The position numbers and the translations under genes are program-made. From the NCBI GenBank assembly GCA_015227615.1, contig JAALGZ010000007.1, positions 1,612,001 through 1,676,000 on the forward strand: a DNA stretch of 64,000 bases. The letters are read 5' to 3'. The stretch is from Labyrinthula sp. Ha (taxonomy: Eukaryota > Sar > Bigyra > Labyrinthulida > Labyrinthulaceae). The notes beneath the pieces are model-generated. The model worked only from the letters and a program-made list of their open reading frames with translations. It made no database searches and was not told the origin of the DNA. Of the stretch, positions 1 through 64,000 are shown one piece after another. Within the stretch, counting starts at the first letter, position 1; every line of letters starts with the position of its first letter.

Positions 1-661
1 GAAAGTTAGAATCTTTTTGTTTATATAACTCAGTAACAACACCAGTTGTTCTCACCCTTGATAATAAAATCTCCTGAGGTGTTGGCACCCAATTCTCACC
101 TCCCCATGCAGGATAATCTTCCAATCTTGTCATAAAATCAGGCCAAGAATCTTCCATTTGAAAAGTATGGCTTTTCTCAATCATGGCTTTTACATTCTCG
201 TCTTTAAACAAAGTCAGCAAGATATGTGCATCTTGATCTGTTACCTTTACAGTTTCCATCCCGTCAGGACGAGACATAGTATCATATCTATTAATACAAG
301 CCTCAGCAGTTTTTTCAATTTCTGGCGAAAAGTTTACATTTTGCACTTTCGCTGCTTTTAAAAGAGCAACCATATTCGTGAAAAGTCCAAGAAGAATTTT
401 TGGTTTCACTTCAAGTTTATCCTTTTCTGAAAATTGTTTTCCATTAAGTAAACGAATTTGTTTCATCACAGTTGATTTCCCTAAAGATAAAAAAGGCGGA
501 AATGAAAATACCGGACTCTCCTGCTCCCAGAAGAAGAAGTTGGATTAACTTATCCCTATATTCCTTATGCTTTCTAATATGGTCACGTACTCTACGCTGG
601 GATGGACTTAAACTACTTAACAAATAAATAAAACATATATAATATACCTTGTATTTCCCAT
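1..661 (-). CDS. G-protein alpha subunit, 5' part (runs off the left edge)
   Basis: Heterotrimeric G-protein alpha subunit, a membrane-attached GTPase that relays receptor signals. Exons read from the right: 648..661, 512..615 and 480..1, with introns of 32 nt (616..647) and 31 nt (481..511), both GT...AG. The start ATG at 659-661 gives MGNTSS, with Gly2 as an N-myristoylation site as in many G-alphas. The P-loop GAGESGKST is at residues 35-43 and the second intron interrupts the Gly40 codon. The long third exon holds the helical domain and then the switch I motif SRVRTTGVV, which contains the Arg that helps GTP hydrolysis and is the ADP-ribosylation site of cholera toxin in animal proteins. 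About 199 residues are visible of a family that is usually 350-400; DxxGQ, NKxD and TCA motifs would lie outside the window. Identification is firm; the subfamily is not determined. Confidence 0.95.
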
Positions 662-3600
662 CTTTTTCCTTGTATTATTATTTTTTTGGTTGAATTAAAA
701 AGGAGTTCTGTTACTTATAAACTCTAAAGTGAGAAGTTTTGAATTTTGCGATGCTAGGATGGAAATGAAAATTGCAACGTGTCTTTAATACAGTATTCGG
801 GTCAAAGTTTCTGGCAAGAAGTTAACTGGATCACATGGTTTGTTTAACTTGTACTAGGGACATCTATGGTTTAAATTAGGGTACCAAGTTCCGGGACAAG
901 AAAGTAGGTGAGAAATAAAGTATATAAAAAAAAAAACAGTATTGAAATCGAATTAATGGTATCAATATACGAATGATATTCGCATATATCGTGTTAAAAG
1001 GGAAATTAAGGAGATTGTAACGGTAAGAATATATTATTTGATATTGAATAAGAACTAACGGGAATTTCCGTTTATTTCTAATATCAGTTTGTAACGGTAA
1101 TAACCGGTAAGAGTATCGAGTAAATGATTAATTCCGATATTCTGAGAAGATTCTTGATATAATACTATGACCTATTTTTTGGGCAGTTCACCATAGTTTA
1201 CGTGTTTTCCTACTTGAAGTCAAAGCTAAGTAAAGCTAGCTAAAACACAAAAAAAAATTTCATTGTGCAACGAGAAATTGTACTTGGAAATGCATGAAAA
1301 ACAATTTCAATAAAACAAGAATCTCTAGTTCCTTCAAGCCTTAAAAATTGGCAGTTCGATCAAATATATGCGAAACACGTACCCAGCACAAGGTTTTTCG
1401 ATGCCCAAAAAACTTGGATGTTCTTCAATTCATAAAGATAATATCTCTACCATTTCACGTGGATTATTCAGTACCTTAGAAGGGTCAATACAAGAGAACA
1501 CACATTTTGGAATTTGCAATTATATGATAAAGATTTGTGTAATTAAAAATGACAAAACTGCAAAGTTAATGTGTTCCTGTTCTAAGCTACCGAAATCAAA
1601 TCTCAGTTAAGGTTTGAGTTCAATCTCGTAGTACTCGACTTAGTTGGAGTCTAGTCTTGACTTTATTGAAGTTCATTTCAAGAACAACTTAATTTAAATT
1701 GAGTTTTAATTACACTCGTTAATATTGAAGCTCTTAACTTTTTTTGAGGAAAACTTGGAATGAGACTAGATTTCCCATACATTTTATTGACAATCATTGT
1801 TCATAGTGTTTGGTTGATTCATATGACCCATTCAGGAATCATGGTCAGTTGCGGATGTACCTATTCACTTTTTTTGAGATCTTAGAAAAATAATGTTTTG
1901 TTAGGGATTCTACAGAAAAAACTTGAATGCTAGAATTAACTTTCTCCTTCGCCTAAATTTATCCCGTTGTTTTCATTGGTTAAATCCAGGGTTCAAATTT
2001 GATTTATTGATAATTCATGAATAACAGTTTTGCCTAAATTCCTCTTTTTCATTAATTCTGATATTTCCCCGACAATTTTGTTTGCTTATTAATATTAAGT
2101 TGATAATTTAGATAAAGACCGAAAAGTTTGATACCAACCAAAATCCCAATTCCCTGATTAATAAACAGAATCAAAACAATTATCAAGTAATAATTAAAAA
2201 TTCTTATCCATTCTAATACCTAGCAAGTTCGGTTTAAATTTCAGACGAGTATCTGTTGAGGTAGTTCACGACCTAAGGTTGAGAAAAGCACCATCTTAAT
2301 CCAATGTCGAGCTTTTTAGCTGTTGAATTACAGCTCGCAAGATAAATTAGAGGTTATAGTCGTTGGTCCTTAGTTGTTGTGGGTTAACCAGAGCAAAAAT
2401 TTAAAGGAATATAGCAAGACTGGGAGTTTTCCTGTTTCAAATGTGCAGACTTAAAAAAATTGAATATTCTGAGTGAAACTTAGCTAGGTTACACCACCCT
2501 ACTGTGGACAAACAATGACAAAGTATTTATGAAGCTATTTTAGTAAAACCCTGATGTCGGAAAAGAGTTAGATCCTCTATAGAGTTGTTCTTCATGATGT
2601 TAAGTTTGAATTTATATTTTTCAACCATCAATAACCTAGGTGTTAATGACCTTATAGTTAGTCTTTTCTAGGGTTTAAAGCTCTCATCCTTATCATGTAA
2701 ACTGAAAATACACATGGTTGAACAAATTTTTTTTTCAGTATTAAGTACTTAGTGGGTGCCAATATTATATGTGAGGTAGATTCCGCACGAAGAAGCAATA
2801 AATACTAGATGTGTTATTCCAGAAATTAAGGTTTTCTTATAGTTCATTTTATTTTACTCTTACAAATATTCATAATAGGGAATGTTAGCATTGATATCCT
2901 ATATTTTTGGTGCCATTTAGAGGAGTTGATCACAAATTTTATTTTGTATCGCCATTTTATTACATTTTTGAATAAATTATTAATAAAGCTATGACTACCC
3001 AGTAATATGAAGTTAACGACAATATCTCTTTGCCTTAGACTTATACTTAATGTAAGAGGTACCGTTAATAATTTTCAAGAGCTCTGTAACATTTTTTCGT
3101 TGTTTTCAATCTGAATTAGAATTGATGAGCTAAAATCTGGTAGTGCTTGCGTCCACCGTAAAGTCATAAAATTAAATTATGCGACTGGGTTGTGATTGCC
3201 GATAGATATTTAGAAAGGTACTGAGAGTCATTTTAGGATATTTACAACTCAAAATTTTTGCTGATAAAAAGAGACTTTAAGACTTGAGGTATTTCAACAG
3301 AAAAAAAGGTTGGCCTAAAAAAAAGTATAGAGCAGCAGCTCAAACTGCTGGAATCTTGAAAGCCTAAAAATCAATCCTTAAATGTATTTTCAAAGATTAA
3401 TATCATAGGCAAAAATAATGAAATAATTAAATGGTGACGTAGATACGCTAAGAGAAGCTATTTCTTGAAAAAAGTCTATCCTTCTCAGATATATAAAGAA
3501 GCGTGAGCACTTAGAAGTTTGCACTAGATAAGAAAAGAAAATATATCATGTTAAGAGAGGAGGTCTAAGATATCATATATTTCCATCTAGTATAGAATCG

Positions 3601-11144: not shown

Positions 11145-12434
11145 CTACTTTCTCCAAAACTTTGGAAGAAAGGAGCGAATGTCTTTCTTTTTTTCTACCA
11201 TTTGTATGTTTCTAGACCAATCGCCATCCTCAAACAAACTCAGCTTTTGCACATCACGGTCTATCTCCGGCAAATGAATACGAGCCCCAATTCCACTAGG
11301 CAAAGTTTTCGTCGTAATTTCTTTCCTAGTTCGCATCATTAGTTCCTTGGACAAAGACAAATCAGCAGCAGCATCTTCAAAAAAGTTAAAATTTTCTTCA
11401 GCAGCTCCAAATTCTGAACTCAATCCAAGTTCAGTCGATAAATCATCGAAAAATTGGTAATTTCGATTAGCATAGCCCAACTCACTAAACTTAGCTTTTG
11501 GTGGAAGAGTGAAACCTAAACTATCTACAACATCACCATTCGCTCCATTTCCATCTGGAAGAGCCTCTTGATCAGTGGCAGCTGCCTGATCTCCACTTCT
11601 CGCATTGGAGTTTCCACCCTGGGATGGTCCAGATCCACCCCTTCCAAAACCTCTTCCGTCACCAGAACTCGGATCTTTGTCATCTCTTCCACCTCTAAGC
11701 ATATTTTCTATTCTTTCTTCTTCTATTTCTCGTGCCCGAGAAACTCTTGATGGTGCCTCCGAATCCTCATAAGGATAATCAGTCAAATCCTCTGGATCAT
11801 ATTCGAAGAAATCAGTCTCGACATCTTCTCGAAGCTCAACTTTCTCCACGGGTTTCTTTTTAATAACAGGCTTCACTAACTTAGGAAACTCAAAATCTGC
11901 AGGGACGCTTTCCATACTTTTCTTTGCAAACATAGCACACTTTTGCTTGAACGTGCTCGGGTCGTTTTTATACATACTCGCAGCGCCTGTGTTGGCAGGA
12001 TCCTCAATATTTGGATCTGATAGAAGGGAAACAACAGATAAAATTGCCTGTTCTATTCCAAGTACAGGTCTCCAATACTGCCCAAGTTCATCCGACCCGT
12101 CTGGCCCATTTTGTAGAGTGGAGATGCACACTTTACCATCCTTGTAAATATTTGGATGCAATATTTCACACAAAAATTGAATAGAAGGAGGCTTCATAGG
12201 GTACTCATCAGGAAATTTAAGATGGGCTTTATACACTCCGTTTTCATATAAGGTGTTTGGTGGTCCAATAAGATAAACTTCCCACATTTGTATGTTGTCA
12301 TTCACAAGTTCTAGAAGGTATTAAAAAGAGCCAAAGTATATACCATAAACTTGAAAAAACTCGGAGTGGGGACTTTTCTTATTTTTTCTAAATTCCCTTT
12401 GAAGTAGAACTTGGGCTGGCTTTTGTTTCTTCAT
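11145..12434 (-). CDS. Ubiquitin-conjugating enzyme E2, UBE2R/G (Cdc34/Ubc7)-like, with long acidic tail
   Basis: E2 enzyme that carries ubiquitin as a thioester and passes it to substrates with an E3 ligase. Two exons, 12434..12344 and 12310..11145, are joined across a 33-nt intron (12311..12343); the join restores the UBC strand FFQVYELVND. The start ATG at 12432-12434 is the first after an in-frame stop. The product is 418 residues. The UBC fold has HPN (residues 82-84) and catalytic Cys92 in GKVCIS, followed by the insert NGPDGSDELG, the acidic-loop insertion typical of Cdc34/UBE2R and UBE2G enzymes. After the core (to about residue 165) comes an unusually long tail with a lysine-rich patch, acidic stretches, a Gly/Ser/Asn-rich segment (about 230-285) and two N-F-F/Q-F-F-[DE]-[DE]-like acidic motifs. 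Cdc34 also has an acidic tail that binds cullin-RING ligases, so an SCF role is plausible but inferred. The N terminus is shorter and more divergent than in most E2s. Confidence 0.9.
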
Positions 12435-15488: not shown

Positions 15489-15636
15489 TGTTGACTTATT
15501 ACACTTAGTAAATATATTTGTTGGTTTTTAACTTTTCGGTTTTTGTAACTTGTGGTGGTCGTTACCGTCATTACGGTCTGATTTTCACCCTATATATATT
15601 TATATACTATTCTATATTTAGGTATTAAAACTAATA
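15489..15636 (-). repeat. Copia 3' LTR (left copy)
   Basis: 148-bp long terminal repeat, a near copy of 19861-20010. On the element's strand it begins TATTAG and ends TCAACA, so the termini are TA...CA instead of the usual TG...CA. The TSD GAAGC precedes it on the plus strand. Confidence 0.93.
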
Positions 15637-15660
15637 TTTTCCCCGTTTCTTCTCTCTTCC
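15637..15660 (-). other. Copia polypurine tract
   Basis: On the element's strand the bases just before the 3' LTR are almost all purine (GAAGAAACGGGGAAAA), the usual plus-strand primer of LTR elements. Confidence 0.75.
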
Positions 15661-17082
15661 TCCTCCCCTGTTTCCCAGGTTAAAAGTTTAATTGATTTAT
15701 TGAATACAGTTTTCGAGACTGGTTTGGTGAAAACGTCAGCAACATTCTTGCTGCCTCTAATAAAATGTATTTTCCATCCACATTTTTTCAGTAGAATTCT
15801 TGAGTAAAAATGTTTTGCACCTAGGTGTCTTGTTCTAAAACTCATCGTCTCACCTTCCATCAGTTTTATACAAGATAAACTGTCCGTGTAAAGTGTTACG
15901 TTTTTTACCTTTATCTTCAGAAACTTGCATAGTGAGTTTATCCATTCCATGCTGCTTAGTGCCTTTGAAATACCCACTGTTTCAGCTTCGGTTGTTCAAA
16001 GGGCTATAGTTTTTGCTTTCTTGTTCTCCAAGATAGTGGAAAACCACTTACGAATATTACGTGTCCATCTATAGAGCTGAAATCGCCAGGACCGTTTTGT
16101 CAAGATGCGTCTACATTAATTGTAAAATTTCCCTTCTCTCTGTTCTTGTGGATAAAAATTCCTCTTTTCTTTGTGTTAAATAAGTATGTAAGTACTCTTT
16201 TTGCTGCTTTCAAGTATCTTCTTGTTGGTGCGTTCATAAATACTGAGAGGCGATTAACGATGTATGCAATGTCAGGCCTGCATATTTCTGTGATGTAAAT
16301 TAGGCTAGCTACTATCTGTTGATATAATTTTGGGTCCATTTCTTCGTTTTCTTTGTATAGATATTCAGACGGTATATGGGGAGTCCCAACCTCCTTATCT
16401 TCAGAGGTCTCATAAACGTTTTTCATCGTTTCTATGTATTTTTCCAGATTCAGTAATGTTCCATTAGGTGTATCGTGAATTTCAAATCCTATGAAGATGT
16501 TCGCATCTTTGGTTTTCTTATTATCGTAGACTTTTTCGAGGTTTCTCAATATAGCATTACTGATTCTATCATCTTTGTAACAAAGTAAAATGTCATCGAC
16601 ATAAATCAATAAGTATGCCATCGTGCCATGTGCGTGCATAGGCGGTAAAGGGTCATCTCAACTACACATATTTCAAATCCGATGCTTCTCAAAGTCTTAT
16701 CTAACTCCAAATATCACGCCCTTGACGACTGTTTTAACTCGTAGATCGTTTTCTTGGTTTTCCATGCGTGATTCTTTCTCATATTTTTGTCTTTCTTAGG
16801 CAGTTCGAAGTAATGATCTTGTTCAAGAAACGCATTGAGGAACGCGTTAGATATATCAATTTGGAGTGTCTTGAAGTTATTGGTTTTGATAAAGTAAATG
16901 AAGAAGCGTATCACCTCCTTGTTGGATACTGGACTATAAAGAGAAGAACTCACTTCAGTATGTTTTCCATTTGCCGCAAACCTCACCTTGCATATTTGTT
17001 TATTCAAGACGTTGTCATACTTGACGTTGAACATTTCAATGAGGCGATAAACTTTGGTTGTTGGAGGGATATTCTTTCTCAA
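15640..17082 (-). other. Copia reverse transcriptase and RNase H region
   Basis: The reverse transcriptase shows LQIDISNAFLNAFLEQDHY (copia-type VKTAFLNG region) and the catalytic YVDDILL. RNase H follows, with TDSLSCIKLMEGE and the copia-typical end HFIRGSKNVADVFTKP. Interrupted in several places. Confidence 0.85.
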
Positions 17083-17099
17083 AACCTTTTTGCACTGAC

Positions 17100-18838
17100 C
17101 TATGGTGAGAAATTTTTATATTCTTTTTCATAGGCTTCATACCAGCTGCTCTTGTTTGCATAATATTTTTTAAAGTTGTAGCTTCGTGGAACTATGTTCG
17201 TCTTGATGTTACTTTCCAGAAATATTTCTTCGTATGGTATTCTAGATTTTTGAAGTTGGGTTGCCAATCTAAAGTGTTTGGTCTTTGTAAGTTGCTTAGA
17301 TGCTTTATTTTGAAGTTTCTTGGACCTTCTAATCCAATGTTTTGGGTTTTCATCGATATCTTCATATCTGATGTTCTTGAAAGCTTCTTTTACTTGATGA
17401 GCTACCTTTGAGTTGGGTTTGTCTAGGATTTGTTCTTGTCGTTTCACGCTCTTATTGGTGATATCTCTATATTTTATTCTATTTCTTAATTTCTCAGAAC
17501 GTGTAATATCCTTGACGTTACGAGATAAAACGATCCCCCTACTACTTCTATCCATTAAGATAGATTCTACAGTTTCAGCATTTTCGCCCAAGTAAATAGC
17601 GGGCTTTGCAGGTGGGGATATCTTATTGTTGGAACTTTCGTCAATATAGTAGACTACTTGTCCGAAAAGATTTTCGTTTTGAATATCTTTTTTTCTCCAT
17701 GGATTAATTCATAAGGAGATACACCTATTCTAAATATTGGTATGATATTTAATGAATACACAGCACGTTTTGCCGCGTGGATCCAGTATTTTTGCATGAG
17801 TTTTGCGTCCAGAAGTAGAACCCTTACTAGAGTTAAAACACTTCTGTTTGCTCTTTCCGCTGTTCCATTCAGTTGTAGTGTGTTTGTGGCACTGAATCTA
17901 CTCTTTATTTTATTGTTTAGGAGATAATTGGAAACTTCCTCGTTAACAAACTCGGTGCCTTTCCCCATGAATGCGCATTTAATACTGTATTCTGATATAG
18001 AAGCCAAATATTTTATTATTCCGATGAGAATATGAGGTATTTCTTTCTTCTTTTTATAATTTTTTAGTACTTTATATTTGGAATAACTATCTGTGATAAG
18101 TAAGAATCCTTTCTCTCCAGAAGTTCCAGCAGTTGGCATAGCAACCGTATCACAATACAACCTTTCAAAAGGTGTATCGGGTAAAGTTAACATTTCCTTA
18201 CCTATTGCATTTTTAGTAACTTTCGCTCTAGAACAGTTTTCGCAAAGGTAGGGTTGTTCCAGGTTAGCATTTTTTATTTTATAGTATTTTATAGTGTTCC
18301 GCCGTGTATTGTCGTTTGGGTGGCCGAAAAACCTATGCCAAGGAAAAGTGAGGTTTGTAGAAAAACAGTGTGAATTTGTTTCCATCTTGAATTTTAGGTG
18401 ATAGAGATTATTCTTGTTCTTTGCCGCAGAAAAAATTGTTGCTTGATTTCTGTTTATCTTGATGTTGCTGTCCTTGAACGAAATGTCATATCCATTATTC
18501 GTCAATTTTTCAAAGGATATGATGCCAAAGTCTTTGGACTGATCCAGTATCAAGGTGTTTCTTAATTTCAACATCTTATTCTTAGGGAGTGTCAAGTGAA
18601 GTTCTCCTTTCCTTGATGCTACGGTTGATCCCGAAATACCTTTAATTTTCCTCTCATGTATAGTTTGTATATTTTTCATATACTTATGCATGTTGGTTCC
18701 AACGATGTTGCAGGAAGCGCCCGAGTCTACGTAGAATATAATAGTTTTTGTTGTTTCTGATTCGTTTTGTAATTTCCTAAGAGAGGATTTGGTTTTGGGC
18801 ATTTTCTCGATTCGATCTTTGGATGAGTATGCTATCAT
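17100..18838 (-). other. Copia protease and integrase region
   Basis: The protease motif YVDSGASCNIVG is followed by the GAG-pre-integrase zinc finger (WHRFFGHPND ... CENCSRAK) and a DDE integrase core that begins ERLYCDTVAMP and includes TDSYSKY. The integrase C-terminal part continues towards the reverse transcriptase. The region belongs to the broken pol. Confidence 0.85.
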
Positions 18839-18862
18839 ATGACTTTTGACTGAATTTTTATT

Positions 18863-19840
18863 TTATTTTTCTTGATTTTTTGTATTTTTATTTTTATTTT
18901 GTTTTTCTGCTTTTTTGATTTTTATGGCTATATTCGAAGCTTCTTCTTCATAATCGCTGTCTTCCTCTTCGTAATCTTGTTCATCTTCGATGTATTTTAA
19001 TTTGGTTAGATCTTTCTTCTCAGTACAACTTCTATTGCATTCGGCAACGTTCGCTTTTCCTTTTCTGTAACATTTCTCTGACTTATGACCATATTTTTTG
19101 CAATAGTTACAGTGTTCATCTTGGTCAGTATGCCCATGTTTTTTGCACTGCTTGCAAAATTTGTTGGACTTAACTCTTTGTTTACTCCATTTGTTCTTGC
19201 TTGCTTTGTTCGGCTTAAGTTTTGCCTTTTCTCTTGCCTCAGCAACAATTGCATCAATTTCAGACGAAAGATTATACAATTGAGAATAAACAGAATCAAA
19301 GTTAAGTTCCTTGTTTGATGCTTTCAAGATCACCTGAAAGGTTTCTATTTGTCTATGTTTAACTATGTTTAGCAACATATCAATTTTATCATCTTCGTCA
19401 ATCACATAGTTGAACGCTTTTAGTTTAATGAGGGTCGTCCTGAAACATTCTAGCTTTTCGCACCAGTTTGCACCAGTTGGGTTATGTAGAAGTTTTTTCA
19501 ACGCTCTCTTTTGCTGTTTTCTATCAATGGTAAACCAGTTATCAAGGATGTCCAGTACTTGAAAAGCAACTTCAACTCCTTCTATTCTTTCGAAAATCTC
19601 TGGAGTGATTGAGTTTATGATGATACCGATGATTTTTGCGTTGTGTTTCTTCTCTGCTGAAGTTAGAACCTTTTCTTGCTGTTCACTTTCCGTGTCAGCG
19701 AATTTTTGTCTCTGATTAATAAGAGGCATGTCGAGATTCTTCTCGATCAAGTATGCCTTTAAACAAGCTTTCCAGAGCTTGTAGTTTTTCTTTTCTTCAA
19801 GAGTACGTATTTTATTATTACTTTCCATAATTTTTAGCAT
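18863..19840 (-). other. Copia gag region
   Basis: A Gag-like segment of about 325 residues with a UBN2/copia-type N-terminal domain (MESNNKIRTLEEKKNYKLWK), then basic linker and two zinc knuckles: a variant CKQCKKHGH one and a canonical C-x2-C-x4-H-x4-C one (CNYCKKYGHKSEKC). An acidic, lysine-rich tail follows. Confidence 0.85.
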
Positions 19841-19841
19841 G

Positions 19842-19860
19842 TTAGAGACGGCTGTTAACC
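19842..19860 (-). other. Copia primer-binding site resembling the tRNA-Asn anticodon arm
   Basis: The bases touching the 5' LTR contain, on the plus strand, CGGCTGTTAACC, which is the anticodon stem-loop sequence of many eukaryotic tRNA-Asn(GUU) genes. The bases before it, TTAGAGA, also resemble the tRNA-Asn D-arm end. Copia-group elements are known to prime from an internal cut tRNA (half tRNA), so this position and sequence fit that habit. The usual initiator-Met primer site is absent. The primer assignment is inferred. Confidence 0.6.
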
Positions 19861-20010
19861 TGTTGACTTATTACACTTAGTAAATAAATTTGTCGGTTTT
19901 TAACTTTTCGGTTTTTCTAACTTGTGGTGGTCTTTACCGTCATTATGGTCCGATTTTCACCCTATGTATATATTTATATACTGTTCTATATTTAGGTGTT
20001 AAGACTAATA
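19861..20010 (-). repeat. Copia 5' LTR (right copy)
   Basis: 150-bp long terminal repeat matching 15489-15636 at about 94 percent by eye. The second TSD copy GAAGC follows at 20011-20015. At 150 bp it is short for copia LTRs, which are usually a few hundred bp. Confidence 0.93.
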
Positions 20011-20015
20011 GAAGC

Positions 20016-20269: not shown

Positions 20270-21632
20270 TTACCGAGAACCTTCATTCATTTCTCTTACA
20301 ACTACTGGAACCGACGTAGCAGGAATAATGCCTACCTCTGTCACCACACTATCCAGAAACTTCACAGGCGTTAGATCATACATCAAGTTTAACAAGAACA
20401 CTTCCTTTCTATCTCGCCAGTCGCTGAGTGCATCTCGCTTCTTCAATCCATCTTCTCCTATAGTGCTAGGTTTCAAGAGCTGATCAGGATCGTGCAGTTC
20501 ATTATTTGCAATTCCATCTAGCTGTACTTTTGACGAGAACTTATAACTTTCTGCACAGAATACTACAGGTTTATTTCTTGAGATAGCCATTAAACAAATA
20601 GGTGCCGTACCAACACGTGAAAGAACTGAGCCATTTGACATGAGACCAGATGCCCCAAGTATTACCTTTGTAATTTTACTTACAACCAAACTAAGTGCTG
20701 AAAAATCAACATACTCACAAGATACTCCTCCATTTTTCAAAGACTTATACATCTAAAAATAACTAAGAATGAAAACATACATTAAAGCTTTCTTCTATTA
20801 TAGGGTTACTAGCTATAACCACAACTTTAAATCGTTTTCCTTTATTCTTTGCTTCTAAGAACGCCTAAGATAAAAGCAAAGTAATAGTTACACCTTTTTT
20901 ACCACAAATGAATGTGAGTATGTTAAAATAATATCACCATCATGAACAAGATCCGTAACTCTCTGGACGATTACTTCTTGAGCAGCTAAGATGGAGGTAA
21001 AAATAAAAGAGTCAATTTTTTCACAAAGCAACTCCTTTGCCTCAACTTCTTCAACATCCGGAGGTATTTCTAAAATATGTTGCCGAAGAAACTTTATTGC
21101 GTTTCCCATGCTAACTGAATGAGGTCTATAATAAGAATAAAAGGAGGTTTACCTGCAGTCAATCAAAGCTTGGATATATGGTTTTAGTCGCTTATCCAGA
21201 TCACGAGCCACAGAGATTCCAGGTGGCGTTTGATAGCTTGAAATAAAACTTTTAAAAGATTCCAACATAGAAATAGTTCTTGCATTTCCACCAACAAGCT
21301 TTTTTTCTCCAAATTTTAATCCAATTCTCTGCAAGATATTGAAAACATGGATATTACAAGTATGCTTGGATGAAGGGTTTTTGCATCTTCATTTGAAAAG
21401 CTCAATTCACGAGACAATGACGATTCAGTTTCATGCTGCGCTATAAATTTTAGTAGAGAAAGCACCAAGTACGCAGGTGCTGGAACAGATAGACTAATTT
21501 CTGGGTCTTTGTTCTTCTTACAACATGCTTTTTATCTGATCCTCTAGGTTTTTGCTGCTTCCTTTGTTGTTCTAGATATAAAATGACGAAGGTTACCTTA
21601 CTTGTTTGATTGTTTTTATTATCCTTAGGCAT
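20270..21632 (-). CDS. EIF2B4: Translation initiation factor eIF2B subunit delta
   Basis: Regulatory subunit of eIF2B, the cytosolic complex that recharges eIF2 with GTP and is the target of stress control by eIF2-alpha phosphorylation. Seven exons: 21632..21597, 21571..21522, 21493..21358, 21328..21153, 21125..20894, 20864..20781 and 20752..20270. The six introns are 25, 28, 29, 27, 29 and 28 nt, all GT...AG, and joining them keeps one frame of 398 residues. Delta-type signatures are RIGLKFGEKKLVGGNART, DKRLKPYIQALIDCRPHSVS, SMGNAIKFL and, in the C-terminal Rossmann-like domain, VILGASGLMSNGSVLSRVGT, NELHDPDQLL and NLMYDLTPVKFLDSVVTEVG. The RPHSVSMGNAIKFL block separates it from the alpha and beta paralogues. 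The N-terminal extension is short and Asn/Lys-rich, and the whole is shorter than the human subunit (about 520). It looks intact. Confidence 0.95.
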
Positions 21633-34174: not shown

Positions 34175-35200
34175 ATGTCTCATATTGCAAACGATTCCAA
34201 CCAAAGTTTAGTATCAAGTGGCATCTTTTCTAGAAAGCGACAGCAAAATAGGAATAGAGTACCTGGTACTACACCTGGTTATTCACCTTCCCCGGGAGAA
34301 TCCCTGCACGCCTTTCCTCCATCTGCAGAAACAGTCATTTCGGATAAACCACGACCATATGCAAACCACTTTAGAGAAAATAAACGACCTCCTTTGAATT
34401 CTCCAGAGCAAATGCTGAAAGAATATAGAACGACAACTGCTGCTAGAGATTATTCTAGACTTGGGCTTCCTATGCCTCAACCACCCCCACCACCTAGAAG
34501 TTATGGAGACAATAATACAGAGCTAACTGGTGTTGATAGTTTATATTCTAAACCTACACTTTCAAGATCACAAGTAAATACACAAAAAAAAGGACTGTAT
34601 GATTTTGCTGAGCCGCCTCGAGAAAAGAAGTTGAAAAAGTTGGCAAGAAGTAATAGAAGAATACGAATAGTAACTATTATTATTGTACTTGCTTGTTTAA
34701 TGCTTCTTTCTGTTGTTGGAGTTGCTGTCTTATCAACTGTGCAGCAATCCAGTGAGGAAACGGAAGAAGAGGGAGAAGAGCAAGTTTTAACAGAGGAACC
34801 CACCAGTGAACCTACCGAATCATCTGCTCCAACATCTGAGCCAACTATAGCCATTTCTCCTACAGATGAACCTACCCCTTTAGTTACAAATGAGCCAACA
34901 CTTTCTCCTACTTTTTCACCTACGCTTTCTGAAGCAGCTCTTAATGAAATCTGTGCCCAGGTTAATTCATCGGATCGAGACAATGCATTTTGCGCTAGTG
35001 AAACTACTTTTGTTCGCTGTGTCTCCAAAGCTATTGACCCGGATGATAATGGAGATTTGATACGCAGTTGTGAAAATAGAGGTACTGGTTTATGTTTGTG
35101 CCCAAGATTTCAAGTTGTAGAAGATTCATTTCCTTGTGATGGAGATGACAGCAATGACAGCGTTAATTGTGATGTTTTGCCGACTCTTGATTCTCTTTAA
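34175..35200 (+). CDS. Single-pass membrane protein with Pro-Thr stalk and Cys-rich ectodomain
   Basis: Intronless frame of 341 residues. Residues 1-162 are polar and Ser/Pro-rich with a proline run (PQPPPPP, about 101-107) of the SH3/WW/EVH1-ligand type, ending in a dense basic patch (KKLKKLARSNRRIR). One hydrophobic segment spans about 163-188. An acidic stretch and then a stalk of E-P-T, S-E-P-T and S-P-T repeats (about 207-250) follow, and then a small domain with eight cysteines (260, 273, 282, 299, 307, 309, 321, 332) and the Asp-rich DPDDNGD and CDGDDSND. There is no cleavable signal peptide, and the basic patch before the segment suggests a cytosolic N terminus (type II). The Pro-Thr stalk is the O-glycosylated type common on protist surfaces, notably in stramenopiles. 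A surface adhesin or receptor is plausible; function not known. Confidence 0.8.
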   Translation: MSHIANDSNQSLVSSGIFSRKRQQNRNRVPGTTPGYSPSPGESLHAFPPSAETVISDKPRPYANHFRENKRPPLNSPEQMLKEYRTTTAARDYSRLGLPMPQPPPPPRSYGDNNTELTGVDSLYSKPTLSRSQVNTQKKGLYDFAEPPREKKLKKLARSNRRIRIVTIIIVLACLMLLSVVGVAVLSTVQQSSEETEEEGEEQVLTEEPTSEPTESSAPTSEPTIAISPTDEPTPLVTNEPTLSPTFSPTLSEAALNEICAQVNSSDRDNAFCASETTFVRCVSKAIDPDDNGDLIRSCENRGTGLCLCPRFQVVEDSFPCDGDDSNDSVNCDVLPTLDSL

Positions 35201-42040: not shown

Positions 42041-44020
42041 ATGTCAACAACAAATTCCGAAGAGATAAAAACACCTTCTTTAAAAACCCTTTCCATCCCA
42101 GATACGGTGAGAACTCCCGTTCCAGAAATTTACAACTATGATTCATTTGGAGAGTCACCTATTTCTGTTGCACTCTCTGAAACAGAGAAGAAATCCAGTG
42201 CGGGGCGGAAAAGTCTTGTTTCGAGCATAACAACAAGGCGAAGTTTCTTTGCTCCAAAGTTACATAAGATTACTTTGAACAGGTTGAAACGTCACAATGG
42301 AAAATCAATTCTTGTGGGTGGTGATGCACAAAGTTATAATGTTTTAAAGATATTTGATGAGAAACGTCCAGGCAGTTTGAGGCCAGACCTGGATTTTATT
42401 CCGTCCTTTATAAACTTTTTTAACTCGCTAAAAGACTTTGGTGCAAGTGAGATGAAGTATTCATTTGTGGAAAATGGGAGTTTCAAAGCAAATAATGAGC
42501 TCTATTTCATGATTTGCTCTTTTTTGCATATTTCAGACACTTTGAACGGTACGCACATGAAGACACAGCAAGCTCAAGCAAAGAAAAAAAAAGATCCCTC
42601 AAAAAGACTTCCAAAAACTGATAATCTTTCCCGGGGATACACTAGAAATATTGCACGCTTAACTTATATACACAATCGAAGAAGAAAATATAGGATCAAG
42701 AAGATAGTTAAGAAAAAGGTTGGACGAACTGACTTGTATCGTGGTCAGGTTGAAGCCTTTAAATATCTTCCACTGGACAAGCTTCGAACGTTTCGACAGC
42801 TTGAATCCAAGTTTCGAAAGGGTCTTGTATCTAATCTTGAAGATCTGCTGCTCAGTCTTCTTGCCAGTGAAAGATACACCCTTTCTAACTTTGCAGATGT
42901 TTTCCGAAGACTGCTTCGCACTCTGCGTAGGCCACTATTTCATGATGCCGAAATCAAACATCTTATTTCCGCCTTTCACCAATACCCAACATACAAGAAA
43001 CTAAGAGACGTTGTGGATAATTTTTCATACCCCTCTAACTTTTACTTTCTTAAGATCATTCAATTTTTTCGTGGTTTACAGCCTTCCAATGTGGAGGTAG
43101 AGCTTTTGTCTACTGTGCTGGCGCCCTCTCTGTTCCGAATACAGTCAGAAACAAGAGCTAGGGAAATTATGTTTTCTATAGCCTCTAAAATAGGAGTACT
43201 AAAAATATTAATTGCACCACGGTTTGACTTAAATGTTGGGTTTACAAAAAGGTATAAGTTAAACGGTGGAAAGTATAAAGGTCAGGTGATTCGAATTCCT
43301 GATGTAATTACCTTTTCAGCTAAGATGGTTCTTGAGGATATATCTTATTTTGGCGGCCAGGTAGTTTGGCCAGATGACAGTTCTAAGAGTGAAAGTTCGG
43401 AAAAATCTCAAAACCTTGAAGCTCAGATTAAAATAATGCTCCAATACCCGAAGAAATTGAGTTTCCCAGTATGGGATAGTTTTACTGCGATAGAGGTACT
43501 GCTGGAAACGCTCAATGCTTTGCCCTTAGCTTTGAAACCATTGGTGTCGACGAAAGCTCTGCTCAATTTATGTTTAATATACAATGCACATAACGTAAAA
43601 AAGGCCTTTGGTTTGGAAAAACACAGCTTGTTGATTAAGTTTTTCTTCGAAGAGCTATCTCCTTCAAACTTCACAACGACCTACGACAACCTTGCCCAAA
43701 AACGATTTGGAGTGCTATCTTTTTTTCTTAACCTCTTTTCGAGAATACTTAACGCCGTTTCTGAGCCCCAGCCAGTTATGAAGAAGTTAACTAACTATTT
43801 TTCTAATAGTTTGTTTTTTCCAAGTTTTGAAAAAGTACAAAATCAACTAATTGGAAAAGATGGTAAGGCGATTACTGCCGACGAGCTCTTCATATTCCTT
43901 TGGTACCAGCATAATAAATTTCAACAAAAGCTTGTGAAAAAAGAGGGTTCCTTGAAAGATGTCACAATATTTAAGAAGAGACTATTTAACCAGAAAAAGT
44001 ACCAGAGCAGTGCTGGATAG
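42041..44020 (+). CDS. Orphan protein with a RhoGAP-like segment
   Basis: Intronless frame of 659 residues; an in-frame TAA two codons before the ATG supports the start. Residues about 245-370 follow the pattern of the second half of RhoGAP domains: FADVFRRLLRTLRRPLFHD matches the F-x2-L-x-R-x-L-P-x-P-L-x-P helix, then a helix pair around LRDVVDNFSYP and FLKIIQFFRGL, then ELLSTVLAPSLFR matching N-L-A-x-V-F-x-P-x-L-L-R. The arginine-finger motif G-[IV]-[FY]-R-x-S-G of active RhoGAPs is not visible, and the invariant Pro of the first motif is Arg. It may be a non-catalytic GAP fold. The N-terminal 60-75 residues are Ser/Arg-rich (RKSLVSSITTRRSFFAPKL), and residues about 195-230 are strongly basic. 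The C-terminal half is helical with no known domain. The RhoGAP link rests on pattern only. Confidence 0.75.
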   Translation: MSTTNSEEIKTPSLKTLSIPDTVRTPVPEIYNYDSFGESPISVALSETEKKSSAGRKSLVSSITTRRSFFAPKLHKITLNRLKRHNGKSILVGGDAQSYNVLKIFDEKRPGSLRPDLDFIPSFINFFNSLKDFGASEMKYSFVENGSFKANNELYFMICSFLHISDTLNGTHMKTQQAQAKKKKDPSKRLPKTDNLSRGYTRNIARLTYIHNRRRKYRIKKIVKKKVGRTDLYRGQVEAFKYLPLDKLRTFRQLESKFRKGLVSNLEDLLLSLLASERYTLSNFADVFRRLLRTLRRPLFHDAEIKHLISAFHQYPTYKKLRDVVDNFSYPSNFYFLKIIQFFRGLQPSNVEVELLSTVLAPSLFRIQSETRAREIMFSIASKIGVLKILIAPRFDLNVGFTKRYKLNGGKYKGQVIRIPDVITFSAKMVLEDISYFGGQVVWPDDSSKSESSEKSQNLEAQIKIMLQYPKKLSFPVWDSFTAIEVLLETLNALPLALKPLVSTKALLNLCLIYNAHNVKKAFGLEKHSLLIKFFFEELSPSNFTTTYDNLAQKRFGVLSFFLNLFSRILNAVSEPQPVMKKLTNYFSNSLFFPSFEKVQNQLIGKDGKAITADELFIFLWYQHNKFQQKLVKKEGSLKDVTIFKKRLFNQKKYQSSAG

Positions 44021-50857: not shown

Positions 50858-50869
50858 CCTAAAGTAACC

Positions 50870-54199: not shown

Positions 54200-56351
54200 T
54201 CATCCATTAAATTCTTCAAGTGCTCTATACGAATCATATTGGTCATCTGTCTGCGAGCGCTCGCCAAACATTATAGATAGTCTCATCACGTGCCCATCTT
54301 CAAGACCGGCTTCTTCCATTATTTTCGTAGAGGCGCGTGAAACCCTTGATACAATGCTATTCCGAATCTTAGCAGTTTTAGTTTTAGTTCGCCTGAGAGT
54401 TCTTGTGAACACCCCTTTGACTGAATGCAGAGCTGTCCTAACACTTAACACGGTGACAACTGTCTTGACTGACCCTTCCCCATCATCCACTTCAGGTTTC
54501 TTCTTAGGGGTTGTTTTTTCATTTTTAGTTGGTTCAGGTTCTAGCATATATAAACTAGCATCAATTCCTTTTACTTTGTTTTTTCGAATAGTTTTCTTGG
54601 TTCGACCAACTGTCTTTCGCTTGGTTTTAACTACTTGTTTCTTTCGACCAGCTGGCGCAGGGTTTTTCTTTGGCTTCTGTAGATTAAGAATATCAAATTC
54701 CAGCTCCATCGTCTTTTCTCTCTTGTTTAATAGTTGAATTTTCTTCTTACTGTAGCCTTGAATATGCACTAACGCCCCCATGCCATCTTGTGCCCTGGGA
54801 TCCCATTTCATACCTCTCTGTATTTTTCGGGGACGTTTATTTACAACTCCGCCTTGCCCATTGGCCGCTGATGTGTCCCAAATCTTGTCAGGAGGAAGGT
54901 CTCGACGCGGTGTATTGACCAGACCGCCAAGCCCGTTTCGTGCCTTCTTGTCCCAGGTCTTACCCTCTGGGATGTTGGCAGGGTCCATTGGTCTAAAAAC
55001 TAGTCTTTTTTGACGATCGGACCACATCATTTCTTGCGGAATTGTTTTTACTGGAGGGGATTTTGTTACTACCTGTGTAGGTCTGGTTTGATTTTTGTTT
55101 GACCTCATTTCTGCAGGTTCTTCATCTTCTTCACCCATGAAGATCACAGTATCGTCATCTACGTCACTTGTTTTCTTTCGTCGTTGCTGCTCCTTACTTA
55201 TCGGGCCGTAGGCGGGAAGTGGAGCTTGTTCCTTGGGAACTGGATCTGGTTCGGCCTGGGGGCGCACTAATGTAGACATATTATAATGCTTCTGAGTTTT
55301 TTTTTGAGCGGAACGCTTAGATCGAAACGTCTCTTCAGCATTAAGAAGATACTTGCTACTTGCCTGATTCTTCTTCTTTCCACGAAGAGTCATCTTGCCT
55401 TTAAACAAACCTTTTGATTTTCGACTATACTAAAACATGAAAGAAAACATACTTGTCAGATTTGCTTCTCCCCGTATTTCCTTTTCTAAAAACACTCATT
55501 CCGAACCTGGTTGAGGACGACTTGCTAGCTGATTTCTTCAAGCTCATCTCAACAGGCCCATACGGTTCCAGATCTTCATAGTGGCTGCTCAGCTTCCTGG
55601 GAATGGGATAGTCTTTCTTCTCGTTTGGAACAAAAATATTAAAGCCGGCAGAGAACATGAACTGCCTCATTTTATTCTTATTCTTCATTAAGTAATCCCT
55701 GTAGCATCTTTTTGTGTCACCCCCACACGAGTCAAAGGAAGACACAGACCATGAACGAGCTGGAAGTACAACATTCGTTCGAGGGACCTTTTTCCTATTT
55801 ACTGTCTCAGTTCCCCCTTCGTAATTAAATTCAGAACCAGTGTCGTGAAAGCTCCGTATACTCGTCACAGAATGAAAGTTAGGATTTCCCTTTCTTCCAT
55901 TCTTCAATATGGAGCGGCCAGTTGTTCCAGGACCATTAAGCCCACTCCTGCTTGCTGTCTGGTTTGTTCGGGTACTCTTCAGCGTGGTATTGGTTGCGTT
56001 GCTCCTTGGTAGTTTTCTCGCTTCTACACCCGTGAAATCTTCCTTATCTTCCTCCGAAGTTTCATCTTTTTTCACTAACCGCCCCTTAGTCTTCTCAGAA
56101 TCTGTAGTAAGACCTTGTGAACGCTGGGAAGCCTTTTTCATTATATTTTTTATTGCCTGTAGGCTTTTTTCCGTATCTTTACCAACTCGTTTCAAAGTTC
56201 TGTTCGCAGCTTCTCGTGTAATAGGTTGTGTTGGGTCAGCAGTGGACATAAGTTGGTCCATTATGGCTGCATTGTCTAGACCAGATGTCACGCTTTCCTC
56301 AGAACTCGTCTTTCGTTGCATCTCAGTCGTTGTTTGTCCGGGTTTTGACAT
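54200..56351 (-). CDS. Orphan basic repeat protein with W-D/G-G motifs
   Basis: Two exons, 56351..55453 and 55424..54200, joined across a 28-nt intron (55425..55452), give 707 residues; retaining the intron would add a frameshift and stop. No known domain. The N-terminal 200 residues are Ser/Thr/Lys-rich and probably disordered. Residues about 240-262 (CYRDYLMKNKNKMRQFMFSA) look structured. Residues about 451-523 hold three tandem 25-residue repeats: GKTWDKKARNGLGGLVN, DKIWDTSAANGQGGVVN and GMKWDPRAQDGMGALVH; a fourth, weaker unit with W but little else lies before them (about 438). The consensus is [GD]-x-x-W-D-x3-A-x-[ND]-G-x-G-[GA]-[LV]-V-[NH]. A lysine-rich segment follows (about 560-600), then an Arg/Thr/Ser stretch (RTLRRTKTKTAKIRNSIVSR) and an acidic end. 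Nuclear or cytoskeletal scaffolding would fit the composition, but function is unknown. Confidence 0.75.
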
Positions 56352-59300: not shown

Positions 59301-62300
59301 TATTTACAAAATGGATAAGGGCTTATGTGTTATTGGTTGTATGTTGTAGTTTGCTATATATAGCGCCCTCTGGAATATCTACGGAAACAAGGGTTACTTG
59401 CCAAACTACGTAAACCCCAGTGAAAAGATTAGTTCATCTTCAGAAATACTGATTACTCAAATTTTTATATATTTTCATAATTCTACAGCTGCCTAATTAC
59501 ATACAGTACAAGAACCCGCTTGAAAAACTATTAATAAAAAACAAAAGAGAGAGAGAGATGACAAGTTTCTACGTTGGTTAATATTTTTAATTCAATTCTT
59601 TTTTGTTATTAGTATGCTAATGTTGAAATTATTCAATTATTTTATCTGTGTTTAGTATGTTTAAGGGCAGTATTTTAGTGGGATGATCATGTCCTCACAA
59701 ATTCTACTTCTTAAAGACACAAAAAGCAAAGCAGACTCATTGTTCATTGTTTTATCTGTGGGTCATTTTATAGAGCGACCCACCCCAGTGGCTTTTATTC
59801 AAAAGCAGATTCTTTTTAGATAAAAAATATAGGTCTCAAGAAAAACGGGAAACGGTGATGTACCTGATACAAGACCACTTTGAGCAAGTCAAACCTGCAT
59901 GCGCCAGCATCGAAACACAATGTTTGAAAATTGGCCTTTATTGTCTCATGTTGAACCTGATTAATGTTTGCGCTCAGAACATTATTTTCCGAAAGTATTG
60001 AGCCGGTTAATGTATTTGCTTAAATACTATTAAAAATGTCACCACTTTGAGTATCTAAGTATTTGGTTGGGTAAAAGTTTGAATCTATTAGCCATGATAT
60101 AGTAGAAATATATTGCTAATCATCACTTTTGTACATAAAACTTTATTTTTACAGGTTTTTAAATAAAAAATAGGAGGTTGAGAAAATTTAAGTATTTCTG
60201 CAAGAGATAATTTTTGGAAAATCATTGTTGAGAAAATAAATAACTTTTTCTTAGAAAAGTTAAGTCAGCCGTGTAATTATATGCTCTATTCTAGAATACA
60301 CTACTTAGAAATCCATGAAGTACGGTGATTCTATATTTTGCTGGTTCCAGTCTTTTGAAAACAGCTTTAATCATGGTATCGTAGCCATGAATTCTTTTTT
60401 TTCATGAAACCTCCACAAGATAGTACCAATGGCTTAATGGATTTTAGAGGTAAACAACACAAGATGAACTATTTATCTAAATTCAGCGAGTAAAACTAAC
60501 TTTAAGTTTCTGTGGAAATATAAACCACAAGATTTACAGAGTAAAATGGGATTTCGCTTTACCTTTGCAAATTTTTGTTGAAATAATCGAAATCATTAGA
60601 GGGTCTACGGAATTAAGCAATAGGATATGTATTCATTTCACCCATAAAATCAAAGTTTCGCTTTAGTGTGCAACGGTAGTCTTATGTGTATATTGAACTG
60701 GGTGGGGAGCAAAGAAACCATACCACGAGGTGGCTAAGAACTATTGCAGAAGAAAGAAATTAGAACATAATAAAACATCACATTTATATTACCAACTTGT
60801 TTGCCACTTAGATCCTCAAAGTAAATTCCATTCCACGCGCTTTCAAGTTTTCTGGTAGCCTTTTTTCTTTAATGAAGAATGTGTTAAAAGGGTATACCTT
60901 AATTGAAACTCATTTTAGCCCAACTTCATTCCACCAACACATATCGTGACACACTACTACTAGAAATGCAGTCTGAGTTCTTAGTGATTTACCAAAAGTA
61001 TTCTTTCCAAAGTTTTCACTTGATTGATTTCGATAAATCCCCGGTACTTTGATTTGTCATTGCTAACCATTGGATTACTGCTACATCAGTCAGAACACAC
61101 ACCTAGCTACTACTCAAAAAGAAAATATCAGCCTTAATTGAGTTATGTTTCCAAACTGTTAGAGGTACAATTTCCTCAGAATTCATTATGATGAACTATA
61201 CTATCATAAGCTTGACCGATTATCCTAGATTTCGGTCTTCTGATGAGGATATTCAACCATATTACAGCTGTTTGTTAGCATTGCTGTACTTGGTATGTTC
61301 TTTGGAGTGTATAGTGGAGATAATGTACCGAAGGGGTGATGCAGTAGATCTTCATAAGTTTACTGGATCTTTTAGTAAGGACTCTAAATTATTAATGTAT
61401 TTCACGAAGTCATGGATATAGTAGAGACAGGAACCTTTGCATGGACGTTAGCCTCTCGATGTAGGGGTGCCAACTACGATTTTTTAATTTCCCCAACAAG
61501 AAATGCATATTTGACTGCTAAGTTGAGCATAAATCAAAAGGTATTTATATTCTAAATAGGGAAAATTGCAAGCTTTTGAATATAAGCTAAACTGTACTGC
61601 CAGCATCAAGGCAAAACTATACAGATCTAGAATAGTTGGGCTTCAAATGAAACAAATCACAACTTGGATAATCCTCGCCTTGGGTGATATTTCAGTGCTG
61701 CAGATCTTTAGTTGCTACCAAAAATGAGTCCCGTTCAATTTATATTTTACATTTGTGGTTGTAAAAGGAGATAAATGTAGCCTATATTAAGCTTAGTTAT
61801 AGTTGGACTGAGGAGCGAAAGTGCAACTTCCCAATATTTATTTACATTGTTAGCTACCATAGCAACGTTATACAATTATGGGAAGAAAATTAAGCATTGG
61901 AGCTGTCGCAAAGAATAAAACGTGCTTCAAATTGTAAGGTAAAGGTTCGGCGCCACCATTCATATACTCACATCTTGGGTTTTTGGTTCCTGACTAGTTT
62001 TGGCATAGGTATCTCAACATATGTCTAGAAGAACTTCGAGTATTCGTTAAAACAATTTTGTGAGGCCTCCAGCTCTGATCTTGGTTAATTTTTTTGCAGT
62101 GAATAGTAAAATAGCATCGCCACAGTATGAACAACTATGGTTTAGATGTATTTAGATATTAAGAAGGCAAAGCACGAGCAACAAATTTTGCTGCTAAAGT
62201 TACTTGATAAAGTTAATATGTCGTTGTGCTTAATAATGACTCGAAAAAAATATTTTGGAATATACTAGTTCCTCATAATATTCGTTACTATACATCCATC

Positions 62301-62660
62301 GATGCTTTATAATTCCACATTATCAACAAATATCTAGAGATCCATATAGACTCAGACATCTGTTCCTTGCTTAACCCTGCACTTATTTTTTGCCTATCAT
62401 CTTTCTAAATGCCTCCTAACAGGAAAACAAAAGAATTTCTCTAATGCCCAGTTTTCTTCCTGAAATGAGTCAAATATCAGATTCAATGAGTTCTTCGTGT
62501 TTTTTCCCCAGATAATGCAGAATCCCATTTGATTCTCATCAAATTCATTTTCCTCTCATATTGGAATTTTCTTTTTAGTTTTTTTGCGGCGCGGAGATAG
62601 TGACTATGTATCACGATATATAATTACCCAAAAAGCCAAAGAAGAAATCAACAAAAAGCA
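56352..62660. other. Gene-poor AT-rich intergenic DNA
   Basis: About 6.3 kb. The first 150 bases upstream of 56351 probably hold the divergent promoter of the W-D repeat gene. A short (GA)n run lies at 59548-59559. Small open frames (for example 61188-61421) show no conserved motif or splice-consistent neighbours. No RNA genes seen. Confidence 0.45.
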
Positions 62661-64000
62661 ATGCAGGCAGGTTTCTATAAGCCGCAAATTCTACTTTGCA
62701 CCCGGATCTTACCTGTACATCTGAAGTAAATAAACCATTTTTGTTTAAAGTTTTAGATATAATGAAAGACGTGGGAAATGGGACTGCAGATATGAAAGTA
62801 GAGCGTTGTTTGAGGATGGTCCCATGTTCAGTGAACTTGGAAAGGCAATTGAAAAAGGAGACTTTTCAGTTTCTTATATTGGAGTCCCACCATGTGATGT
62901 ACCGCCTGAGCAGCAGGAAATTGTTTCAAGACTGCTACGAGCGAAGAACTGTTATCCTATATTCATCTCGAAGAAACTACGAGAAGATCATTTTAATGGA
63001 TATTGCAAGCAGGTACTTTGGCCTTTGTTTCACAACTTCGTGGATAAATCTAGTGGATCAACTTCTGATGGTGTTGCTAACTTAGGTTTAGATACTGCCT
63101 CGCACTGGCCAGCGTATTATCAGGTAAACTCTAGATTTGCGCAGAAAGTTGTTGAAGTTTATAGACAGAATTGTGTTATTTGGGTTCATGATTATCATCT
63201 TCTTTTGATGCCTGGTTTCCTTATGAGAAGACTTCCACAGGCAAATGTCTCATTATTTATGCATGTGCCTTTTCCAAGCTCTGAAATTTTTCGAATTTTT
63301 CCAAAGAGGGAAGATATTTTGAGAGCCATGCTCTGTGCAGATCACATTGGTTTTCACCTCTTTGAATATAGCCGACATTTTATTTCTTCATGTAAACGAC
63401 TTTTAGCTATTTCAAGTGAAGGAAGAAGGGTAGTGTCTTGATTGTTTTTATACATAGGGTGGCACTTTGACAATTAAGCACTCTAACAGGAATATAATTG
63501 TAAGTAGCGTTCACGCTGGTATTAATCCAGATGAAATATTGAAATTGCTTCGTAACAGGCGGGTTTTAGACTTGGCTGCAACATATCATCACAAACAGCA
63601 AAGTCGCTACAACGAAGGCCCAGGACGAGTAAGAGTGATTCTTGGAATTAATGAAGTGGAGCGTCTGCAAGGAATATCTTCTAAGCTCATTGCCTTTAGC
63701 GAGTTGTTGGCACTTCGAGAACGGCAAAAAAATCCTGAGAAAGTGATATTGAGGCAAATTGGAATTCGGTGTTTCGCCTCTAGTAAAGATTATGCTAATA
63801 CAAAGGGTATTATTATGAAGATGATAAAGTCTATCAAAGACAGGTTTGGTGATGTTATCCAGTATGAGGAGCATACGGCCTTTTCCCTGTCTCAACGGAT
63901 TGCTGCGTATGTAAATGCAGATGTGTTCTTGCTTACACCTTGGTCTGAAGGCTTGAATATGATGCCTCTCGAGTTCATTGTTGCCAATAAATTAGGTACC
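62661..64000 (+). CDS. Trehalose-6-phosphate synthase-like protein (GT20), 5' part, divergent active site
   Basis: GT20 family; active members make trehalose-6-phosphate from UDP-glucose and glucose-6-phosphate. Exons 62661..62725, 62757..63429 and 63458 to the right edge, with introns of 31 nt (62726..62756) and 28 nt (63430..63457). The ATG at 62661 leads into RILPVHLKYNERRGKWDCRY, the counterpart of the N-terminal N-R-L-P-V...G-x-W region. Conserved blocks are NGYCKQVLWPLFH (102-114), WVHDYHLLLMP (164-174), HVPFPSSEIF (191-200), DHIGFHLFEYSRHF (217-230) and VHAGINPDE. The nucleotide-binding loop is altered: residues 309-318 read GINEVERLQG where active enzymes have G-V-D-R-L-D-Y-x-K-G, so the Arg and Lys that contact UDP are Glu and Gln. 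SEGLNMMPLEF (409-419) replaces the D-G-M-N-L motif. This pattern suggests a class II or regulatory protein with weak or no synthase activity. A C-terminal phosphatase domain, usual in class II proteins, would lie outside the window. Confidence 0.92.

What the first reader, a model, noticed from the sequence alone, without database searches (positions are those of the whole stretch)
1..64000. Ultrashort spliceosomal introns (25-33 nt) in every recognisable multi-exon gene
Seen in the sequence: 12 introns in five genes (G-alpha 32, 31; E2 33; eIF2B delta 25, 28, 29, 27, 29, 28; W-D repeat gene 28; trehalose synthase-like 31, 28) are GT...AG and join conserved protein motifs exactly. They average about 29 nt. 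Known: most eukaryotic introns exceed 50 nt, and this class is known from few lineages, such as Paramecium and chlorarachniophyte nucleomorphs. The spliceosome of this organism must tolerate almost no branch-point-to-acceptor space. No longer intron was found in these genes, so the tight range looks like a rule.
Basis: partly seen in the sequence, partly recalled or inferred. Interest (0 to 1): 0.88.

Follow-up and report, generated by a model that had tools for sequence, protein, structure and literature searches.

The report
Protist with 29-base introns, altered U6
This single-celled eukaryote has introns of only about 29 bases, among the shortest known, and the one U6 splicing RNA found in its genome differs at two normally conserved catalytic elements, which would make it a natural test of how little the splicing machine needs.

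Summary
The introns are real, and the pattern extends beyond the window. All 12 exist; 10 of 12 stated lengths are right (eIF2B delta's first two are 30 and 32 nt, not 25 and 28; window range 27-33). In 319 kb of the same 50.8-Mb genome a self-trained gene finder called 61 introns outside transposon-like models: 54 are 24-35 nt, median 29. Long calls are no commoner than decoy splice signals give; the one long call I could resolve was really a 29-nt intron, 6 remain unresolved. Four public MAKER proteins of the organism require introns of 27-38 nt; their quality tags, as I recall the format, report transcript-confirmed splice sites. An A lies 7-9 nt from the intron end in 51 of 54 introns, the likely branch point. 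U1 and U2 pairing sequences are canonical, but the one U6 found reads AUAGAGA for ACAGAGA and GGACGAC for GGAUGAC, and U4 pairs with its diverged region. G at +5 is rare (7 of 54). Ultrashort introns are a known kind (Paramecium, Stentor, mikrocytids, Blastocystis); the host is probably a stramenopile, perhaps a labyrinthulid. The U6 changes are the surprising part; splicing itself was not tested.

The parts
1..661 (-). G-alpha gene, 5' part (runs on beyond the window start)
   Evidence: G-alpha structures matched; a G-alpha family hit at C121:1611546-1612481 spans the window edge
616..647 (-). G-alpha intron 1, 32 nt
   Evidence: only 4 residues upstream, so less secure
481..511 (-). G-alpha intron 2, 31 nt, inside the P-loop (GAGES^GKST)
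   Evidence: same position and phase as introns in L004, L006, L008, two of which (L006, L008) match public gene models exactly
11145..12434 (-). E2 ubiquitin-conjugating enzyme gene
   Evidence: UBE2G1 and others, best E 7e-39
12311..12343 (-). E2 intron, 33 nt
20270..21632 (-). eIF2B delta gene, 7 exons
   Evidence: P0001 99% identical
21572..21601 (-). eIF2B delta intron 1, 30 nt
21441..21472 (-). eIF2B delta intron 2, 32 nt
21329..21357 (-). eIF2B delta intron 3, 29 nt
21126..21152 (-). eIF2B delta intron 4, 27 nt
20865..20893 (-). eIF2B delta intron 5, 29 nt (public model: 38 nt, 20865-20902)
   Evidence: homologues keep the 3 residues that the 38-nt version drops; public model
20753..20780 (-). 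eIF2B delta intron 6, 28 nt
54200..56351 (-). gene with short W-D motifs (not WD40)
   Evidence: coding score; no Pfam family
55425..55452 (-). its intron, 28 nt
   Evidence: coding signal only
62661..64000 (+). trehalose-6-phosphate synthase gene, 5' part
62726..62756 (+). TPS intron 1, 31 nt
   Evidence: upstream of the structurally aligned region, less secure
63430..63457 (+). TPS intron 2, 28 nt

Best explanation
The organism, probably a stramenopile and perhaps a labyrinthulid, has a major (U2-type) spliceosome whose ordinary substrate is a 24-35-nt, U-rich GT-AG intron. Shown by sequence: the length class, the GTA...TTTAG ends, an A 7-9 nt from the intron end in nearly every intron, canonical U1 and U2 recognition sequences, U2AF65- and SF1-like proteins, and a single detected U6 gene with AUAGAGA for ACAGAGA and GGACGAC for GGAUGAC. 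Inferred: the A at -7 to -9 is the branch point, so 5' splice site to branch is about 20 nt and branch to acceptor 6-8 nt; U1 and U2 meet across the intron. Also inferred: the U6 changes relax or shift the reading of 5' splice site position +5, in keeping with the scarcity of G there.
For: Decoy control. 54 of 61 intron-35 nt. Four public proteins fit the DNA exactly, each with one solution: introns 34; 31; 30, 28; and 30, 32, 29, 27, 38, 28; of the 8 of these introns that my finder had also called, 7 agree. Their tags give AED 0.00-0.04, with the splice-site field at 1, 1, 1 and 0.83 (field meaning recalled). A 251-nt call in the ARPC1-like gene of L028 resolves by eye to a 29-nt intron. A at -7..-9 in 51 of 54 introns, at most 42 in any other 3-nt window counted. 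U1 AUACUUACCUG and U2 GUGUAGUAUCU. One U6 hit over the family cut-off (48 of 6155 first-look candidates scored) and one core match with 1 mismatch, followed by a T run. U4 pairs with the diverged U6 at 14 of 15 stem II positions, one a G-U. SF1-HH, U2AF65-like.
Against: No RNA reads seen here; transcript support comes from public model tags alone, and one public intron differs (38 against 29). No statistically firm branch motif: a 7-mer scored 17.6 against a best shuffle of 16.9, and a 6-mer did not beat shuffles. +5 G loss does not need a U6 change: the commonest Stentor intron (GUAAUUUUUAUAUAG) lacks +5 G while Stentor U6 keeps ACAGAGA (PMC9505925). A at +5 is only mildly enriched (20 of 56, p 0.011). 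METTL16 and SNRNP27K homologues are present, so loss of these does not explain the splice sites.
Confidence: 0.85

Rival explanations
1. The short introns are one class among others; longer introns exist but were missed because coding signal or homology does not span them.
For: 7 of 61 calls exceed 45 nt (84-389), 6 of them unresolved; I looked at 4 of these 6 (L014 176 nt, L016, L018, L022) in translation without a homologue to decide. Only 319 kb of 50.8 Mb was read.
Against: Calls of 100 nt or more are no commoner with GT-AG (18) than with decoys (19-25), and 45-99 nt calls are rarer (4 against 7-12). The one long call with a recognisable homologue was a 29-nt intron.
Confidence: 0.12
2. 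The intervals are frameshifts or assembly errors, not introns.
For: Multiples of three are not clearly depleted (16 of 54).
Against: They begin GTA (46 of 54) and end in T-rich TTTAG-like ends; interiors are T-rich (49% T against 27.7% in flanking exon); paralogues share an intron position in the P-loop with different sequences; public gene models cut at the same places in 7 of 8 comparable introns.
Confidence: 0.01
3. The U6 found is a divergent extra copy, and a canonical U6 lies in unassembled sequence or was not scored; the ultrashort introns need no change in U6.
For: Assembly has 153 contigs; U1 and U2 show three hits each but U6 only one; 48 of 6155 first-look U6 candidates were scored. 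U6 score 59.9 bits against 104.9 for a canonical contaminant U6.
Against: No other match to the canonical 21-base core within 2 mismatches in 50.8 Mb; the U4 here pairs with this diverged U6; T run downstream and TATA-like tract upstream.
Confidence: 0.25

Closest known systems
Blastocystis introns (stramenopile; PMC5608401, passages including Table 1)
   Same: GT-AG major introns with modal length 30 bp in ST1, ST4 and ST7. (Another paper, PMC12817076, passages, gives a median of 19 nt for Blastocystis species.)
   Different: 84.6-94.6% of Blastocystis genes have introns and ST1 has 346 U12-type introns; here 27 of 57 gene models outside transposon-like ones have an intron call and no U12 was detected (a search that rang in no control genome, so not proof of absence). 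Blastocystis assemblies are 12.9-18.8 Mb; this one is 50.8 Mb.
Stentor coeruleus tiny introns (PMC9505925; abstract, sections 2.1-2.3, start of 2.4, and 2.5)
   Same: AU-rich ultrashort introns, branch A at a nearly fixed short distance from the end without strong consensus, canonical U1 and U2 pairing sequences.
   Different: 15-16 nt with a 5-nt tail after the branch; U6 ACAGAGA and the triplex U reported as conserved, both changed here.
Paramecium introns (PMC5014332, passages)
   Same: Unimodal ultrashort introns (mode 25 bp), no longer class reported.
   Different: Ciliate; strong pressure against 3n introns reported; here 16 of 54 are 3n.
Mikrocytid introns (PMC10245619, passages)
   Same: Very narrow range at the short extreme, in a lineage where genome size is uncoupled from functional reduction.
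   Different: 16 or 17 nt, with a reduced spliceosome (17-19 proteins identified).

Membership tests
U2-type (major) spliceosomal introns | GT...AG ends | tested here: met
   GT-AG was required by the finder; the decoy control shows the short class is specific to it
U2-type (major) spliceosomal introns | Major snRNAs in the genome | tested here: met
   U1, U2, U4, U6; U1 is just under its gathering score (66.2 of 69.5); U5 not searched
U2-type (major) spliceosomal introns | U6 ACAGAGA box | tested here: not met
   AUAGAGA in the only U6 found
U2-type (major) spliceosomal introns | Branch-point factors SF1 and U2AF65 | tested here: met
   SF1-HH over cut-off; U2AF65-like 249.6 bits, under the curated 310.3
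Ultrashort-intron genomes | Mode under about 35 nt and no distinct longer class | tested here: met
   54 of 61-35 nt; longer calls at decoy level; 319 kb sampled
Ultrashort-intron genomes | Removed from mRNA | tested here: inconclusive
   No reads; public gene models with transcript-support tags agree
U12-type introns | U12 snRNA | tested here: inconclusive
   No match, but the search rang in no control genome
Labyrinthulomycetes (host organism) | Closest relatives are labyrinthulids | tested here: inconclusive
   G-alpha: named hits include Aplanochytrium (45%), Thraustochytrium sp. LLF1b (42%), Hondaea (40-41%), Mucochytrium (39%), but also the dinoflagellate record Durusdinium (44%) and most rows are unnamed; eIF2B delta: nearest named hits are oomycetes, no named labyrinthulid among the 120 rows; the 18S search did not complete

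The most novel reading that the evidence does not exclude
The sole U6 snRNA of this organism has changed two of the most conserved bases of the spliceosome: the ACAGA-box base that normally pairs with intron position +5, and the stem-loop base that forms a catalytic triple. U4 and the introns have co-evolved with it, giving a natural spliceosome with a rewired catalytic RNA core that works on 29-nt introns. (From recall, group II introns carry C at the position equivalent to the second change.)
Probability: 0.5. Interest if true: 0.82.

Novelty: new variant of a known kind. Interest (0 to 1): 0.62.

Why it matters
It adds a probable further stramenopile to the lineages with only ultrashort introns, in a genome of 50.8 Mb where predicted coding sequence outside the transposon fills about a sixth of the window (10.5 of 64 kb, a lower bound), so general compaction is an unlikely cause. 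If the U6 changes hold, they are a natural test of how U6 reads the 5' splice site at +5 and of how tolerant the catalytic RNA triple is, questions otherwise studied by mutation.

Tried and rejected
Rejected: loss of METTL16 or SNRNP27K as the cause of the +5 change; both homologues are present. Rejected: the gene finder's long introns as evidence of a second class. Rows dropped before counting: of 68 calls, 7 in transposon-like models (window copia element 30 and 35; L017 55, 27, 27; L018 minus strand 29, 33), leaving 61. Earlier counts kept some of these: 58 of 66 short with only the copia calls dropped, and 52 of 56 for the branch A with L017 dropped too; the conclusion is the same. Led nowhere: motif search for a branch consensus; U6 core in viral contigs (0 hits) and genome contigs (2 hits, one a canonical U6 in a mislabelled MAG contig); a 101-residue G-alpha query, wasted because only proteins of similar length are compared; Rfam on the window (0 matches). 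Paper searches answered. Those on METTL16, ACAGAGA and labyrinthulid introns failed at the database, so I cannot say whether the introns or the U6 of this organism are already in print.
Full report
OBSERVATION. The window is G000:C121:1612001-1676000 of an unnamed 50.84-Mb eukaryote in 153 contigs. I trained an explicit-duration gene finder on its long open frames. With a flat prior on intron length (12-400 nt) and only the dinucleotides required, GT-AG gave 37 introns, 14 of them 25-34 nt; seven decoy pairs gave 34-41 introns with 1-5 of them 25-34 nt. At 100 nt or more the counts were 18 for GT-AG and 19-25 for decoys; at 45-99 nt 4 and 7-12. The short class is therefore real and the long calls look like noise. 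After retraining on the short class, 68 introns were called in 319 kb. I dropped 7 in transposon-like models. Of the other 61, 54 are 24-35 nt (mean 29.7, median 29) and 7 are 84-389 nt. The 20 stretches of 10 kb on six contigs hold 24 of the short and all 7 of the long calls; the rest of the short ones are 12 in the window, 7 at G-alpha loci and 11 at WD40 loci. One long call, 251 nt in an ARPC1-like gene, is wrong: reading the DNA, a 29-nt GT...AG interval joins the two halves in frame (ARPC1 sequence recalled). The other 6 stay unresolved; I looked at 4 of them without finding an anchor.

CORRECTIONS. The first two of eIF2B delta are 30 and 32 nt. A public protein of the same organism (P0001, EukProt, 99% identical) fits the window DNA in one way only, which confirms 30, 32, 29, 27 and 28; it makes intron 5 38 nt, dropping three residues that P0002 and the solved structures keep, so I prefer 29. 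The 'W-D' gene matches no Pfam family.

TRANSCRIPT SUPPORT. Three more EukProt proteins of the organism fit uniquely: P0241 with a 34-nt intron, P0281 with 31, P0326 with 30 and 28. Their names carry MAKER tags: AED 0.01, 0.00, 0.02 and QI strings whose second field is 1; for P0001 AED 0.04 and 0.83. As I recall, that field is the fraction of splice sites confirmed by transcript alignment; this was not checked in a call. The P-loop intron (GAGES^GKST, same phase) is shared by the window G-alpha and by L004, L006 and L008 with different sequences and lengths 31-34.

ANATOMY. Among the 54 introns an A occurs at -7, -8 or -9 in 51; the two overlapping windows next to it have 42, and those further off at most 29. 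On the slightly larger set of 56, interior A is 21.6%, which predicts 29 against 52 seen, and A at -8 alone is 27 of 56, p 1e-5. The branch therefore most likely lies 6-8 nt before the last base. No word motif was firmly better than shuffles. The donor is GTA (46 of 54) with T or A at +4; +5 is G in 7, A in 19, T in 25, C in 3. Introns are 49% T against 27.7% in flanking exon (56 introns).

MACHINERY. U1 starts AUACUUACCUG and U2 has GUGUAGUAUCU, both canonical. U4 and U3 lie beside U1. An SF1-HH protein and a U2AF65-like protein (249.6 bits, under the 310.3 cut-off) are present. The only U6 hit (L039 1501-1609, minus strand; 48 of 6155 candidates scored) has AUAGAGA where the Rfam consensus has ACAGAGA, and GGACGAC where it has GGAUGAC. 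No second copy of the core lies within 2 mismatches of the canonical sequence; one place at 3 mismatches looks like chance. It has a run of T downstream and a TATA-like tract upstream, and U4 pairs with its diverged stem II region at 14 of 15 positions, one of them G-U, so it looks functional. By the canonical scheme (recalled) the changed ACAGA-box base faces intron position +5; G is scarce there. This is a correlation only, since the commonest Stentor intron lacks +5 G with a conserved ACAGAGA, and METTL16 and SNRNP27K homologues are present.

ORGANISM. G-alpha hits name Aplanochytrium, Hondaea, Mucochytrium and Thraustochytrium sp. LLF1b (labyrinthulomycetes), but also Durusdinium, and most rows are unnamed; eIF2B delta names oomycetes first and no labyrinthulid. 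Stramenopile is likely, labyrinthulid plausible, not proven. The 18S search did not complete.

COMPARISON. Ultrashort introns are known: Paramecium mode 25 bp (PMC5014332, passages), Stentor 15-16 nt (PMC9505925, sections), mikrocytids 16-17 nt (PMC10245619, passages), Blastocystis mode 30 bp (PMC5608401, passages; a median of 19 nt is given in PMC12817076, passages). What differs here is the lineage, a large genome with low predicted coding density (10.5 kb in 64 kb outside the transposon, a lower bound), and the U6 changes. Whether the U6 changes are in print I could not find out, because the relevant paper searches failed.

Noticed in passing
L039:1501-1609 (-): Single U6 snRNA hit with AUAGAGA and GGACGAC in place of ACAGAGA and GGAUGAC, with a covarying U4.
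   Followed up: partly
window 15618-19867 (-): Copia-like retrotransposon pieces (my reading of the frames), broken into several frames.
   Followed up: no
C96:200-223 kb and C135:72-77 kb (L029-L031, L037, L038): U1 and U2 genes, with U3 and U4 beside the C96 U1 copies, in what looks like an inverted duplicate on C96 and a further copy on C135.
   Followed up: no
genome-wide: 37 G-alpha family matches (some are pieces of one gene), seemingly many for a protist.
   Followed up: no
window 34175-35200 (+): Predicted single-pass membrane protein with a run of P-T-E-P-T-like repeats, a style I recall from stramenopile proteins.
   Followed up: no
L047:2255-2359: Canonical eukaryotic U6 gene in a contig filed as a Verrucomicrobiaceae MAG: probable contamination.
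   Followed up: no
window 42041-44020 (+): Intronless 659-aa protein with a sub-threshold RhoGAP match (18.5 of 24.5 bits).
   Followed up: no
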